NCBI RefSeq assembly: GCF_014896945.1
Contig: NZ_CP054719.1
Location: forward strand, 605,153-669,152
From: Candidatus Bodocaedibacter vickermanii
Lineage (GTDB): Bacteria; Pseudomonadota; Alphaproteobacteria; UBA6184
Direction of reading: 5' to 3'
DNA: 64,000 bases
Positions 17,761-59,244 of the stretch are shown here, in pieces; position 1 is the first letter of the stretch, and every line of letters starts with the position of its first letter. Under the pieces are notes generated by a model. It did not search any database. It was not told where the DNA came from and saw only the letters and a program-made list of their open reading frames with translations. The translations under genes were made by a program, and so were the position numbers.

Positions 17761-18060
17761 TAGCAGGGGGCTTTCTGTTGCCCGGCGCCCCCCAAACCGC
17801 TTCGCGTTATGCGGCTACTCTTACACCGATAACAGTGTTACGATTAGCTGCAGTTACGCGACGTGCCTTTGTAGTTTTGGCATTTATAAAATTAGCCCGA
17901 TATCGGCGGTTACCATGCCGGATGAAAGATCGTACCTTTATTATGTGCGTCGATCCTATTTCGCCCCCTCAGTTAGAGTGGTGGAGGCGCCGGGTACCGC
18001 CCCCGGGTCCGCTCCACTTATTCCGCACATCGTTTATCATCATAGTTGGCCTAAACCAAC
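17761..18060 (-). ncRNA. ssrA: Two-piece (permuted) tmRNA
   Basis: Transfer-messenger RNA that rescues stalled ribosomes. On the minus strand the acceptor piece comes first and ends CGCCTCCACCA at 17979, with a CCGGG-GGCGGTA-CCCGG T-arm. After a 10-base spacer the coding piece begins GGGGGCGAAATAGGATCGACG-like at 17968. GGGGGCG pairs with CGCCTCC to make the acceptor stem. The tag frame starts at GCA 17851 and reads AANRNTVIGVRVAA, then TAA at 17809-17807. A G-run/C-run pseudoknot around CAACAGAAA closes the piece at 17761. Permuted ssrA is typical of alphaproteobacteria. The exact 5' end of the precursor is inferred from the promoter. Confidence 0.93.
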
Positions 18061-18066
18061 ATATTT

Positions 18067-18095
18067 AATATACATGTATTAAATGCAAAGATCAA
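18067..18095 (-). promoter_or_regulatory. Promoter of ssrA
   Basis: TTGATC (18095-18090) and TATATT (18072-18067) on the minus strand are 17 bases apart. Transcription would start near 18060, just before the acceptor piece. Good fit to a sigma70 promoter. Confidence 0.65.
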
Positions 18096-18114
18096 ACACG
18101 ATTAAAAAGGGATC

Positions 18115-18714: not shown

Positions 18715-19020
18715 CCATACCACCAGCGTGCCGTTGCATCCGTTAGGCAACGTGCCCTTGCACCAGTGATGATCCCTGGACCCCATAGATTAGATCCGAT
18801 GTGGTCTGACACGGATTATAAGCAACAACGTTGCAACAATTCAGGAATTTATTCGTATAACTTTGAGTCCAGCGTGATGCTGGCAACCTGCCATTGCATC
18901 CGATAAGTCAGATCCAATTCGCACAAACACGGATTATAAGCAACGCGCCGTTTCATCCGACAAGTTAGATCCGGTATGATCGACACGGATTACACAGCAC
19001 ACCCGTCAACTGTATTAACT
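18715..19020. repeat. Block of variable-stem hairpin repeats
   Basis: At least three rounds of the family: degenerate GCAACG/CGTTGC hairpins, TTAGATCCGATNNGNNCTGACAC-type spacers and ACGGATTATAAGCAAC arms in alternation. Copies are diverged, and no reading frame is conserved across them. Confidence 0.8.
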
Positions 19021-19050
19021 CTCTCATTTATGCCAACCTCTGTCGTTATG

Positions 19051-19122
19051 CGGCTCAAGCAAATCGCAACACGATTTGATAGCGGCAACCGCCGCTCTGG
19101 CGCGTAAAGCGCCCTTGAGCCG
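19051..19122. repeat. 72-nt cloverleaf-forming repeat, copy 1
   Basis: A closing 9-bp stem CGGCTCAAG/CTTGAGCCG encloses three stem-loops: CAAATCG/CGATTTG, AGCGG/CCGCT and GGCGC/GCGCC. All stems are perfect. A second copy at 58719-58790 keeps every stem and differs only in loop bases. It is tRNA-sized but has no tRNA consensus (no GGTTCGA arm, no CCA). The flanks are also shared, from about 19002. Confidence 0.85.
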
Positions 19123-19134
19123 CCAATCTGACGC

Positions 19135-19345
19135 TGAACTCAATAGATTAGATCCGATTCGTTCTGACACAGGTTATAAGCAACAACGCTGACACACTTT
19201 AGAAATTTATTCGAGACTCCCATGCGTCTCGCGTTACGCAGGCAACGTGATACTGACGGGCGCCCAAGGTGGATCAAAAATCCCATTCATCCTCGACGAC
19301 AATACTCCGTCTCCAACCACATCGGATCTAACCTAATGGATGCAA
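19135..19345. repeat. Variable-stem hairpin repeats, diverged block
   Basis: Contains TTAGATCCGATTCGTTCTGACAC, a GTCTCGCGTTACGC-like hairpin remnant, CACATCGGATCTAACCTAATGG and GCAACC-GCA-GGTTG. It leads directly into R245 copy 2. Confidence 0.7.
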
Positions 19346-19356
19346 CCGCAGGTTGT

Positions 19357-19588
19357 CGTTAATTTGAGGTTAATAAAGGTTAACAATTTTTTAATTTTTC
19401 TGATTTTTGCGCACCCCCCGCCCCAGACACCCTCAGTGACCTTCGGGTGGGGGGACAAAACCCACTCCCTAAATCGAGACTAAATAGACGAAACGATCCG
19501 TCATTTTTTCTCGAAACGGTGGGCAAAAATAATAATGTATGAGCGCTCTAAACTTACAATACCTCACAAACGTTAACAAAAGATTGAC
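19357..19588. repeat. R245 structured repeat, copy 2
   Basis: Same order of landmarks as copy 1. The left part is more AT-rich and shifted, but the G-run/C-run hairpin, ATAGACGAAACGATCCGTC, GTATGAGCGCTCTAAA and the terminal AAAGATTGAC are present. It is joined on its right to the composite unit shared with the 59.2-kb region. Confidence 0.85.
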
Positions 19589-19687
19589 GGAATTCACTTT
19601 TTTGGCAGCGTGACGCTGCACCCCATAAGTTATATCCGATTCGCACAAACACGGATTACAAAAACACCATCATCCTTCAAAAATATA

Positions 19688-19715
19688 TTGACAATCCGAA
19701 TTCACTGTGTATACT
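19688..19715 (+). promoter_or_regulatory. Promoter of the short-RNA cassette A
   Basis: TTGACA (19688-19693), 16 bases, TATACT (19710-19715). The same boxes and spacer recur in the second unit at 59245-59272 (TTGACT, 16, TATACT), although the bases between them vary. Conservation of the boxes argues for use. Confidence 0.65.
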
Positions 19716-50662: not shown

Positions 50663-50911
50663 AATTATTAGAAAAAGCACCACCGTTAATCTGAAATTAA
50701 TAAAGGTTAAAATTCAGTTAACACGATTTTTTTACCACCCCCCGCCCTAGTCACCCTCAGTGACCTTCGGGTGGGGGGACAAAACCCACTCCCTAAATCG
50801 CAAAAAAATAGACGAAGCAATCCGTCTTTTCTTCACGAAACGGTGGGCTGAAATAAACTATGTAAGTGCACTAAAGATATACTATCGTACAAACGTTAAC
50901 AAAGAATTGAC
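50663..50911. repeat. R245 structured repeat, copy 3
   Basis: Shares the longer left end ATTATTAGAAAAAGC with copy 1. The central G-run/C-run hairpin is intact. The right part has lost the GAGACTAA stretch and the second ATG motif is altered (CTATGTAAGTGCACTAAA). Confidence 0.85.
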
Positions 50912-50924
50912 AAAACAAACTTTT

Positions 50925-51150
50925 TTAGCAACGTGACGCTGCACCCTATAATCAGATCAGATTCGCACAGACACGGATTTCAATTTTTACAAACTGTATT
51001 ACCTAATGGATCCAACGGCACGTTGGCAGCGTGACGCTGGATTCAATGGGGGTACTCGAATAAATTTCTGAACTATCATAATGTTATTTATACAATCCGT
51101 GTCAGATCACATCGGATCTATCCTATCGGGTGCAGCAGCATGCTGCCCTA
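50925..51150. repeat. Variable-stem hairpin repeats
   Basis: Contains GCAACG-TGA-CGCTGC (mismatched), ATTCGCACAGACACGGATT, CCAACG-GCA-CGTTGG, GCAGCG-TGA-CGCTGG, ATCCGTGTC and GCAGCA-GCA-TGCTGC. Three different stems occur within 130 bases. Confidence 0.8.
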
Positions 51151-52598: not shown

Positions 52599-52617
52599 AA
52601 CTAAGTATTCATAGCGC

Positions 52618-52967
52618 AGGGGGATAGAAGGTCGCTGTTGATTAACGTCAATAGAGGAAAGTCCGGACTCCACGGAAATAAGGTGCCGGATAACGTCCGG
52701 CGGGACAGCTTCGGCTGTTTTAGGGAAAGTGCAACAGAAAATATACCGCCACTATGTGGTAAGGGTGAAATGGCGAGGTAAAAGCTCACCGCTTTTTCAG
52801 CAATGAAAAAGGCAGTGCAAACCCCACCTGGAGCAAAGCTAAATAGGAACACGCGTCATTGACAGGTGAATTTCCGCACCGTGTTCGGGTAAGCTGCTTC
52901 AGCCAACAGGCAACTGTTGGCGCAGATGAATGGCCTTCCACGACAGAATCCGGCTTATAGTCCCCCT
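52618..52967 (+). ncRNA. rnpB: RNase P RNA, bacterial type A
   Basis: Catalytic RNA that matures tRNA 5' ends. Conserved pieces in order: GAGGAAAGTCCGGACTCCACGG near the start, GGGAAAGTGCAACAGAAA, GGTAAGGGTGAAATGGCGAGGTAA, CAAACCCCACCTGGAGCAA with AAATAGG, and the 3' end ACAGAATCCGGCTTATAG. Helix P1 forms from AGGGGGA at 52618 and TCCCCCT at 52961-52967. The flanks have no clear U-tract. The 3' neighbour is an IS200-like element inserted 40 bases away. Confidence 0.96.
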
Positions 52968-53007
52968 TTACAGATCGCGATCGAACACCACATATAGCAA
53001 AACACGA

Positions 53008-53658
53008 CTCAACCACTACCAGCTGAAGCTGGTAGGTTGTAATTACAGACTGGAAGTCTCTGACTACTCTAAAGAGATATTAGAAAGGTTATTTGACTGG
53101 AAAGAGTCCGTATGATTGTTGATGTAGGCATTAATGATGTCATCAGTAACATTGCCGCTCGTTGAACTAAAGAACCCTCGCCCCCAGAAGTGTCTTCCCC
53201 AATATTCTTTCTTGATATTAGGAAACTCCTGCTGAATCTTTCTTGACAATCGTCCCTTTGCTATTTTTACAAATTCACTGACCGATACGTGGGGAGATAT
53301 TTCTACAAAAATATGCACATGATCTGCTGACAACACGCCATTGCAAACCTTAACACCCAGTTCATCAGCAACCTGTGCGATCACCTCACGCACTCGTAAT
53401 CTTAATTCACCACTTAGAACTCGTTTACGATACTTGGTGATCCATACTAAGTGATATCTATGGTAAAATACGGTGTGGCTGGTTTTGCTATAATCTGTCA
53501 TATGATACCCGTCGCGTTTCTCAAGCGCTAGCGCTTGAAGACTAAGCTAGGGTATCATATTTACTCCTTTTTTTCAATACCTCGCCTCTTTTCCTTTACC
53601 AAGGACTGAAGTCTTTTTCGCCTGGAAGGCGAAGGTTTTAACCATAAAGGGGACTATA
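53008..53658 (-). mobile_element. IS200/IS605-type element, copy 1
   Basis: 651-bp element that is almost identical to 57370-58020. It starts CTCAACCACTACCAGC with a subterminal hairpin CTACCAGC-TGA-AGCTGGTAG and ends GGGGACTATA. It contains the palindrome TCAAGCGCTAGCGCTTGA and a CGCCT/AGGCG hairpin near the right end. No inverted repeats and no target duplication, as expected for the family. Edges were set using the interrupted gene at copy 2. Confidence 0.93.
53064..53501 (-). CDS. tnpA: IS200-type Y1 transposase TnpA
   Basis: 145-aa HUH single-strand transposase. The metal-binding pair is SADHVHIFVE near residue 60 and the catalytic Tyr lies in DDIINAYINNH near 129. YHLVWITKYRKRVL near the start and YWGRHFWGRGFF are family blocks. 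It moves the element by single-strand excision and insertion guided by the end hairpins. It differs from copy 2 at two residues (ISPHV/IPPHV and RLSRK/RSSRK). No tnpB is present. Confidence 0.96.
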   Translation of the reverse strand: MTDYSKTSHTVFYHRYHLVWITKYRKRVLSGELRLRVREVIAQVADELGVKVCNGVLSADHVHIFVEISPHVSVSEFVKIAKGRLSRKIQQEFPNIKKEYWGRHFWGRGFFSSTSGNVTDDIINAYINNHTDSFQSNNLSNISLE

Positions 53659-54002: not shown

Positions 54003-54222
54003 CGAATTAACAAAGGTTAAGATTCGATTAACGCGATTTTTTTACCACCCCCCGCCCCAGTCACCCTCAGTGACCTTCGGGTGGGGGGACAAAACCCACT
54101 CCCTAAATCGAGACTAAACAGACGAAGCAATCCGTCTTTTCTTCACGAAACGGTGGGATAAAATAACAATGTATGAGCGCTCTAAACTTACTATACCTCG
54201 CAAAGGTTAACAAAAGATTGAC
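54003..54222. repeat. R245 structured repeat, copy 4
   Basis: It starts directly at the end of a GCAACG-TCA-CGTTGC hairpin (as does copy 5), with the shorter left end GAATTAACAAAGG. The central hairpin, ATAGACGAAG-like block and AAAGATTGAC end are present. Confidence 0.85.
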
Positions 54223-54370
54223 GAGGTGGATATTTTTTATCTTTAAGAACATTTTCCGTAAAGTATAAAAATACTCTCTCCGCGCTGTGTCAGAATTAAA
54301 GGTGTTTTGCTATAGATGTGAAACGCATTATGATTTGATGTTGATCTTTGAACTTTGGGCGTAGTTGCTG

Positions 54371-57369: not shown

Positions 57370-58020
57370 CTCAACCACTACCAGCTGAAGCTGGTAGGTT
57401 GTAATTACAGACTGGAAGTCTCTGACTACTCTAAAGAGATATTAGAAAGGTTATTTGACTGGAAAGAGTCCGTATGATTGTTGATGTAGGCATTAATGAT
57501 GTCATCAGTAACATTGCCGCTCGTTGAACTAAAGAACCCTCGCCCCCAGAAGTGTCTTCCCCAATATTCTTTCTTGATATTAGGAAACTCCTGCTGAATC
57601 TTTCTTGACGATCGTCCCTTTGCTATTTTTACAAATTCACTGACCGATACGTGGGGAGGTATTTCTACAAAAATATGCACATGATCTGCTGACAACACGC
57701 CATTGCAAACCTTAACACCCAGTTCATCAGCAACCTGTGCGATCACCTCACGCACTCGTAATCTTAATTCACCACTTAGAACTCGTTTACGATACTTGGT
57801 GATCCATACTAAGTGATATCTATGGTAAAATACGGTGTGGCTGGTTTTGCTATAATCTGTCATATGATACCCGTCGCGTTTCTCAAGCGCTAGCGCTTGA
57901 AGACTAAGCTAGGGTATCATATTTACTCCTTTTTTTCAATACCTCGCCTCTTTTCCTTTACCAAGGACTGAAGTCTTTTTCGCCTGGAAGGCGAAGGTTT
58001 TAACCATAAAGGGGACTATA
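57370..58020 (-). mobile_element. IS200/IS605-type element, copy 2
   Basis: Same length and ends as copy 1, with a handful of base differences. It is inserted in a small gene. The near identity of the two copies points to recent movement. Confidence 0.95.
57426..57863 (-). CDS. tnpA: IS200-type Y1 transposase TnpA
   Basis: 145-aa intact HUH transposase. HVH metal site and Tyr as in copy 1. Two residue differences from copy 1 (IPPHV, RSSRK); neither touches a catalytic position, so both copies could be active. Confidence 0.96.
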   Translation of the reverse strand: MTDYSKTSHTVFYHRYHLVWITKYRKRVLSGELRLRVREVIAQVADELGVKVCNGVLSADHVHIFVEIPPHVSVSEFVKIAKGRSSRKIQQEFPNIKKEYWGRHFWGRGFFSSTSGNVTDDIINAYINNHTDSFQSNNLSNISLE

Positions 58021-58214: not shown

Positions 58215-58640
58215 CCCGCCAGTGCTGATCCCTGGCAGCCTGAGGCTGCACCCATAGGTTAGATCCGATGTGCACAAACACGGATTACACTAAACAACCC
58301 AATGCCTTGGAGATCTCAATTTTCACAAACCGTATTACCCATTGAGTCCAGGGATCATCCCTGGCGCCACGCTGGATCCATACGATTTTCCCACACTATG
58401 TTCGGCGCAGGTTTGCTCCTGGCAACGTGACGTTGCATCTATGAGAAGAAAGTCTGGAGCAAAGGGCGCCGCGTAATTGTTTTATGTGAGTTTAACTATA
58501 AATATGGTTGGAAAAAATTACAATTCGTGTCAGCACACATCCGATACCACCTATAGGATCCAACGGCACGTTGGCAGCATGATGCTGCACCCATAAGTTA
58601 GATCCGATTCGCACAGACACGGATTATAAGGAACTAACAC
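58215..58640. repeat. Block of variable-stem hairpin repeats
   Basis: Contains GCAGCC-TGA-GGCTGC, CCAGGGAT-C-ATCCCTGG, GCAACG-TGA-CGTTGC, CCAACG-GCA-CGTTGG and GCAGCA-TGA-TGCTGC within 350 bases, linked by TTAGATCCGATNNGCACA, ACACGGATTA and complementary arms. No gene is visible. Confidence 0.85.
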
Positions 58641-58718
58641 AGTATGCCTCTCGAATCTCGCCCAACACATCCGTCAGCTGTATCAACCCTCTCATGTATG
58701 CCACCCTCTGCCTCTATG

Positions 58719-58790
58719 CGGCTCAAGCAAATCGCAACGCGATTTGATAGCGGCAACCGCCGCTCTGGCGCGTGAAGCGCCCTTGAGCCG
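58719..58790. repeat. 72-nt cloverleaf-forming repeat, copy 2
   Basis: CGGCTCAAG/CTTGAGCCG closes the three arms CAAATCG/CGATTTG, AGCGG/CCGCT and GGCGC/GCGCC. Compared with copy 1 the changes (A to G in the first arm loop, A to G in the third arm loop) spare all stems. Matching flanks extend left to about 58666. Confidence 0.85.
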
Positions 58791-58934
58791 GCAACGTGCC
58801 GTTGCACCAGCGTGACGCTGGATCCGTTAAGTTTGTTTGTTTCAAAACATTGATATTTTAAACTGCTGACAGGCTGCTTACTAGAACATGTGTCCAAACA
58901 CATCGGATCTAACCTATTGGATGCAACGTCACGT
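58791..58934. repeat. Variable-stem hairpin repeats
   Basis: GCAACG-TGC-CGTTGC and CCAGCG-TGA-CGCTGG follow the cloverleaf directly; CACATCGGATCTAACCTATTGG and GCAACG-TCA-CGTTGC lead into R245 copy 5. Confidence 0.8.
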
Positions 58935-59157
58935 TGCGAATTAATAAAGGTTAAGATTCGGTTAACACGATTTTTTTACCACCCCCCGCCCTAGTCACCC
59001 TCAGTGACCTTCGGGTGGGGGGACAAAACCCACTCCCTAAATCGAGACTAAATAGACGAAGCAATCCGTCTTTTCTTCTCGAAACGGTTGGCAAAAAATA
59101 ATAATGTATGAGCGCTCTAAACTTACTATACTCCACAAATGTTAACAAAAGATTGAC
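58935..59157. repeat. R245 structured repeat, copy 5
   Basis: Short-left-end form that begins at a GCAACG-TCA-CGTTGC hairpin, like copy 4. All landmarks are present; GGTGGG near the right end reads GGTTGG. Confidence 0.85.
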
Positions 59158-59244
59158 AAACCAGCGTGACGCTGCACCCACTAGGTTAGATCGGATTCGC
59201 ACGGACACGGATTACAAAAAACACCATTATCTTTCAAAAACATA

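What the first reader, a model, noticed from the sequence alone, without database searches (positions are those of the whole stretch)
19051..19122. 72-nt perfect cloverleaf repeat (second copy 58719-58790)
A 9-bp closing stem encloses three perfect stem-loops, giving a four-way junction of tRNA size with no tRNA consensus. Both copies keep every stem while loop bases differ. In DNA it could extrude as a cruciform; in RNA it could mimic a tRNA.
Basis: seen in the sequence. Interest (0 to 1): 0.65.

Follow-up and report, generated by a model that had tools for sequence, protein, structure and literature searches.

The report
Mobile cloverleaf-shaped DNA repeat, endosymbiont genome
A 72-letter DNA sequence that can fold into a perfect four-armed cloverleaf is scattered in about thirty places in the genome of a protist endosymbiont; it behaves like a tiny, non-coding jumping repeat that keeps its folded shape and points with the direction of DNA replication, not like a tRNA mimic.

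Summary
The host genome is almost surely Ca. Bodocaedibacter vickermanii. Its sister genome (probably UBA6184) has 10-15 copies at other places. No copy turned up in the same-family genome, in the rest of a 385-genome alphaproteobacterial sample, or in viral contigs, plasmids and phages.
All four helices show compensatory change between copies: 10 of 28 pairs change on both sides (0 of 500 shuffles). Mismatches show no strand preference, so nothing points to an RNA. ARAGORN and Rfam find no tRNA or known RNA there.
The unit is a ~45-nt F block, the cloverleaf (invertible), then a short-hairpin R block. Four conserved gene intervals that hold it in the sister genome lack it here. F-to-R polarity follows the replication half in both genomes (37 of 44 copies, p about 5e-6), also away from co-directional genes; R blocks show no bias. 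The genome's IS200-type transposon is biased in 9 of 9 copies.
Best reading: a non-autonomous, REP/MITE-like palindromic element spread through folded single-stranded DNA at replication forks. Its transposase is unidentified; the resident IS200 has different ends. New variant of a known kind; tRNA mimicry not supported.

The parts
19051..19122 (+). Cloverleaf copy 1 (subfamily A): 9-10 bp closing stem CGGCTCAAG/CTTGAGCCG, arms of 8, 6 and 5 bp
   Evidence: sequence, fold, alignment A3 with covariation
58719..58790 (+). Cloverleaf copy 2 (subfamily A); 70 of 72 bases as copy 1, both differences in or next to loops
18992..19050 (+). F block of copy 1 (...CTGTATTAACTCTCTCATTTATGCCAACCTCTGTCGTTATG), seen in the window only beside a cloverleaf
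   Evidence: nhmmer hit E=5e-16; only 2 F hits in the window, both at cloverleafs
58661..58718 (+). F block of copy 2
   Evidence: nhmmer hit E=4e-16
19123..19200 (+). R block beside copy 1: degenerate short hairpin (CCAATCTGACGCTG) plus ...AGATTAGATCCGATTCG...ACACAGGTTATAA tail
   Evidence: nhmmer; the R family occurs ~36 times in the window, mostly without a cloverleaf
58791..58869 (+). R block beside copy 2, starting with two hairpins GCAACGTGCCGTTGC and CCAGCGTGACGCTGG
   Evidence: sequence, nhmmer
57426..57863 (-). IS200/IS605-family TnpA (145 aa), one of 9 near-identical intact copies in the genome; comparison element, its ends do not resemble the cloverleaf
   Evidence: PF01797 142 bits; NF033573 149 bits against cut-off 55; IS ends
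53064..53501 (-). Second IS200-type TnpA copy in the window
   Evidence: PF01797 137 bits, translation, ends

Best explanation
The cloverleaf is the core of a short non-autonomous mobile DNA element (REP/MITE-like): an asymmetric flank F, an invertible 72-nt four-way-junction palindrome, and usually a neighbouring short-hairpin R block. Shown: about 30 copies in one genome and 10-15 in its sister at different places; two subfamilies shared by both species; compensatory change in all four helices; decay and truncation of some copies; and polarity that follows the replication half. Inferred: that it spreads as single-stranded DNA at replication forks, with the strand R'-cloverleaf'-CATA(F') on the lagging-strand template, folded into the cloverleaf and recognised in trans by an HUH/Y1-type transposase or another single-strand-handling enzyme. 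The fold would be kept because only folded copies propagate; fixed copies then decay.
For: Copies: 31 BLAST matches in the genome and 13 (19 at a looser cut-off) in the sister; covariance-model matches including subfamily B in both. Covariation: 10 of 28 pairs changed on both sides, 30 cells, 0/500 shuffles, far above slid controls; stem diversity 0.08 against 0.30 unpaired. Positions: four syntenic gene intervals that hold a copy in the sister (L033, L036, L039, L073) show no cloverleaf here. Main subfamily 4.8% divergent here against 10.9% between species, which suggests amplification in this lineage. Replication: third-position GC skew is negative from ~210 kb to at least ~910 kb and positive in the segments sampled elsewhere; polarity 10:4 against 1:16 (Fisher p=0.00035), sister 11 of 13, combined binomial p=5e-6, and still p=0.008 without co-directional gene contexts; R blocks unbiased (28:27, 12:10); IS200 9 of 9. 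No strand-specific mismatch bias.
Against: No transposase is tied to it: the intact IS200 has unrelated ends, the second Y1 family is decayed, and every ATGCGGCTCARG in the genome is at a cloverleaf copy, so no autonomous element with these ends was found. No exact insertion junction or target duplication was resolved, because intergenic DNA is too diverged between the two species. The polarity rule (side bearing TATG/CATA, or TACT/AGTA in the sister) was set by hand after viewing the copies; a strict F-block score alone gives p=0.008. The skew zones were interpolated from sampled stretches. Copies are not fully independent (duplications near 51 kb, 827 kb, 1157 kb), and shuffle controls do not remove relatedness.
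Confidence: 0.62

Rival explanations
1. A structured regulatory RNA or UTR element (mRNA stabiliser, processing site or small RNA) selected at each site for the host's benefit.
For: Covariation in all helices. Several copies, above all in the sister genome and subfamily B, lie just after stop codons or between convergent ORFs.
Against: Positions are not conserved between the species; one-sided mismatches show no G-U preference in either strand; subfamily B and some A copies are inverted relative to F; no intrinsic-terminator-like site was found at copy 1; decayed and truncated copies exist.
Confidence: 0.17
2. A DNA-level cruciform or protein-binding site with a chromosome function (replication or nucleoid), its polarity set by that function.
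For: Polarity follows the replication halves in two species; perfect palindromic arms.
Against: No regular spacing evident; clustered and truncated copies; genus-restricted; positions not conserved; about 16% of copies point the other way.
Confidence: 0.1
3. Passive repeat: stems are kept perfect by templated repair of quasi-palindromes during replication, with no selection or transposase; copies spread by recombination between R blocks.
For: The neighbouring R hairpins also have perfect but variable arms; direct R'-R joins occur; partial copies join inside an arm at short homology.
Against: In the sister genome several copies stand without an adjacent R block, so R-R recombination cannot explain them; R blocks have no replication bias while F-cloverleaf units do.
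Confidence: 0.1

Closest known systems
REP / REPIN elements mobilised by RAYTs
   Same: Short, non-coding, intergenic, palindromic, tens to hundreds of copies, proposed spread as folded single strands by a Y1 HUH transposase encoded in trans; a 'clover' REPIN fold was proposed in PMC3116915.
   Different: Four-way junction of 72 nt instead of one or two simple hairpins; no GTAG (or CGTC) tag recognised; no RAYT found, only an IS200-type TnpA with different ends.
CGTC-tagged REPs of alphaproteobacteria (incl. rickettsial RPE-4/RPE-6)
   Same: Alphaproteobacterial palindromic repeats without a dedicated transposase (PMC3733652).
   Different: Those are single 8-9 bp stems with a CGTC tag and CCA tail; the cloverleaf has neither.
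MITEs (non-autonomous DNA transposons)
   Same: Terminal inverted repeat (9-15 bp), no coding capacity, dispersed.
   Different: No parent transposon shares the ends and no target-site duplication was resolved; internal arms are palindromic themselves.
tRNA / tRNA-like structures
   Same: Size and cloverleaf topology only.
   Different: Arm and loop sizes differ; no ARAGORN or Rfam match; palindromic on both strands.

Membership tests
REP/REPIN (RAYT-associated) | High-copy extragenic palindrome | tested here: met
   about 30 copies here, 10-15 in the sister; copies lie outside large ORFs
REP/REPIN (RAYT-associated) | GTAG/CGTC unpaired tag beside a simple hairpin | tested here: not met
   flanks read TATG|CGG..., CATA or TACT; no tag pattern
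REP/REPIN (RAYT-associated) | RAYT gene in the genome flanked by the repeats | tested here: not met
   PF01797 search: only IS200-type TnpA and decayed Y1 copies; P0001 scores 33.9 bits on REP_Tyr_transpos, below its cut-off 80
REP/REPIN (RAYT-associated) | Movement shown by presence/absence differences | tested here: inconclusive
   four syntenic gene intervals hold a copy in the sister and none here: presence/absence differs, but loss is not excluded and no junction was read
MITE | Terminal inverted repeats shared with an autonomous transposon | tested here: not met
   all 25 ATGCGGCTCARG sites in this genome are cloverleaf copies
MITE | Target-site duplication | tested here: inconclusive
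   flanks between the species too diverged to find junctions
IS200/IS605 derivative (PATE-like) | Ends derived from a resident IS200/IS605 element | tested here: not met
   IS ends TTTATAGTCCCC... and ...CTACCAGCTTCAGCTGGTAGTGGTTGAG are unrelated to the cloverleaf
IS200/IS605 derivative (PATE-like) | Orientation bias relative to replication | tested here: met
   37 of 44 copies in two genomes concordant, as for 9 of 9 IS200 copies here
tRNA or tRNA-like RNA | Covariance/consensus match to tRNA or another Rfam family | tested here: not met
   ARAGORN and Rfam find none at either copy

The most novel reading that the evidence does not exclude
A previously undescribed class of single-stranded-DNA mobile element whose recognised form is a four-way-junction cloverleaf that can flip between fixed flanks, inserted with replication polarity and maintained in an obligate endosymbiont lineage by a trans-acting enzyme not yet recognised.
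Probability: 0.25. Interest if true: 0.7.

Novelty: new variant of a known kind. Interest (0 to 1): 0.45.

Why it matters
Reduced endosymbiont genomes are expected to lose mobile DNA, yet this one carries a structured repeat whose main subfamily looks recently amplified. If the cloverleaf is the transposition substrate, it would link single-strand folding, replication polarity and repeat spread in an uncultured lineage, and give a clean natural test (compensatory pairs, orientation bias, invertible core) of how palindromic repeats such as REPs propagate. The genome paper does not mention palindromes, intergenic elements or transposons in its main text.

Tried and rejected
tRNA/tmRNA and known RNA families: none at the cloverleaf. 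IS200 TnpA as direct parent: ends do not match. A weak Y1 hit in a 245-aa ORF read as TruA-like, judged a false lead from its sequence. Reverse transcriptase (RVT_1): none in this genome, two group-II-intron-like genes in the sister, so not the common engine. Autonomous element with the same ends: none. Occurrence in phages, plasmids and viral contigs: none. Alphaproteobacteria at large: only the two congeneric genomes among 385. Intrinsic terminator: no site at copy 1. Strand-specific RNA selection by G-U bias: none. Literature searches found no description of a cloverleaf intergenic repeat, within a limited open library.

Full report
Observation. Both 72-nt copies are real and fold as described. 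A scan of the window for a >=9-bp stem enclosing >=3 perfect hairpins finds only these two places and none in 20 shuffled windows. The closing stem of copy 1 is 10 bp.

Where it is. The window is part of a 1,391,311-base single contig. A gene in the window is 93% identical at protein level to Ca. Paracaedibacteraceae UBA6184. Size and GC match Ca. Bodocaedibacter vickermanii (1.39 Mb, CP054719), whose paper pairs it with UBA6184 (PMC8163844). The identification is strong but was not made by accession. That paper's main text has no occurrence of 'palindrom', 'intergenic' or 'transpos'.

How many. BLAST gives 31 matches in this genome, 22 of them nearly full length and within about 10% of the query, and 13 (19 at a looser cut-off) in the congeneric genome. 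A covariance model adds divergent copies, including a second subfamily, B (CGGCTCAGG...CCTGAGCCG), found in both genomes. The same-family genome has none above chance; a 385-genome class sample has none beyond the two congeners; viral contigs, phages and plasmids have none.

Structure is what is kept. Across 40 copies 97.6% of pair cells are standard, 10 of 28 pairs have changes on both sides (30 cells), all four helices contribute, and no shuffle of 500 reaches this; slid controls give 1-6 pairs and 1-9 cells. Stem diversity is 0.08, unpaired 0.30. 26 of 40 copies keep every pair. A derivative in the sister genome keeps only the closing stem and one arm, with a compensatory pair of its own (CGACTCAAG/CTTGAGTCG). 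One-sided departures are 12 G-T and 8 A-C in the modelled strand (p=0.50), so there is no sign that one strand as RNA is the selected form. The test is weak with 20 cells.

Anatomy. In this genome the cloverleaf lies between an F block (~45 nt) and an R block (short hairpin with variable arms plus a conserved tail). In the window F occurs only with the cloverleaf; R occurs about 36 times, mostly alone, and 74 times in 276 kb of sampled sequence. R blocks also meet head to head directly. In L023, L024 and the subfamily B copies with a recognisable F side, and in L037 of the sister, the cloverleaf is inverted relative to the F side. In the sister genome several copies stand without an adjacent R block, so the cloverleaf with a short F end can be an independent unit.

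It has moved or been lost by site. Flanking genes of sister copies were located here. In the four cases where both flanks are still neighbours (L033, L036, L039, L073) this genome has no cloverleaf. Junctions could not be read because intergenic DNA is too diverged. The main subfamily is 4.8% divergent within this genome but 10.9% from sister copies, as expected of lineage-specific amplification.

Polarity follows replication. Sampled GC skew and third-codon-position skew are negative from about 210 kb to at least 910 kb, and positive in the segments sampled elsewhere, which places the skew switches near 205 kb and about 930 kb. Taking the side with TATG/CATA as F, polarity is 10 plus, 4 minus in the negative zone and 1 plus, 16 minus in the positive zone (p=0.00035). 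Without the co-directional gene contexts it is 7:4 against 1:12 (p=0.008), so gene direction does not explain it. In the sister 11 of 13 agree with the skew of their contig. Combined 37 of 44, p=5e-6. A stricter automatic F score alone gives p=0.008. R blocks are unbiased (28:27 and 12:10). The nine intact IS200-type copies are perfectly biased (5 minus in the negative zone, 4 plus in the positive), as expected for elements that target the lagging-strand template (PMC6006769).

Mechanism. These facts fit a non-autonomous element that moves as folded single-stranded DNA during replication. What is shown: multicopy, dispersed, species-different positions, covarying fold, replication polarity. 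What is inferred: single-strand intermediate, and a trans-acting transposase. The resident IS200 TnpA (NF033573) is the only intact Y1 enzyme found, but its ends are unrelated to the cloverleaf; no element with the cloverleaf's ends and a gene was found. Decayed copies of a second Y1 family exist in both genomes and could be an extinct engine.

Comparison and verdict. It works like a REP/REPIN or a MITE but fails defining tests of both (no GTAG/CGTC tag, no RAYT, no parent transposon), and is not a tRNA-like RNA by any test run. I rate it a new variant of a known kind: a palindromic mobile repeat with an unusual four-way-junction core.

Noticed in passing
window ~36 places, e.g. 18747-18846, 19605-19696, 58563-58649, 59160-59231, and inverted 20442-20378, 53873-53789: A very abundant second repeat family (R blocks, 74 in 276 kb sampled): a ~6-bp hairpin with TGA/TGC-type loop whose arms differ from copy to copy yet stay complementary (CCAGCG/CGCTGG, GCAACG/CGTTGC, GCAGCA/TGCTGC), plus a conserved tail; some meet directly head to head like REP dimers.
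   Followed up: partly
895-1132, 19403-19640, 50727-50964, 54037-54274, 58971-59208: A ~238-nt module (CCCTCAGTGACCTTCGGGTGGGGGGACAAAACCCACTCCCTAAATCGAGACTAAATAGACGAA...) in five copies; twice it sits between inverted R blocks, like a second cargo.
   Followed up: no
53064-53501 (-), 57426-57863 (-): IS200-type transposase, 9 near-identical intact copies in the genome, all oriented with the replication halves; ends at TTTATAGTCCCC and GGTTGAG.
   Followed up: yes
L102 (G000:C1:889900-891500), L103 (G000:C1:1038800-1040200), L104 (G001:C41): Decayed copies of a second Y1 transposase family in both genomes, one ~0.6 kb from a cloverleaf copy.
   Followed up: partly
F-cloverleaf boundary in L024, L066, L067, L072: The F end and the first bases of the closing stem can form an alternative hairpin (CCGCA-NNTA-TGCGG), clearest in subfamily B and older copies; could compete with the cloverleaf.
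   Followed up: no
G001:C89 (L109): The sister genome has two group-II-intron-type reverse transcriptase genes on one contig; this genome has none.
   Followed up: no
17762-18099 (-) and 52616-52973 (+): Permuted alphaproteobacterial tmRNA and class A RNase P RNA genes in the window (Rfam).
   Followed up: no
1994-2149: Short tandem repeat (12-bp steps) coding for a GMEKGIAK-like repeat inside ORF 1265-2245.
   Followed up: no
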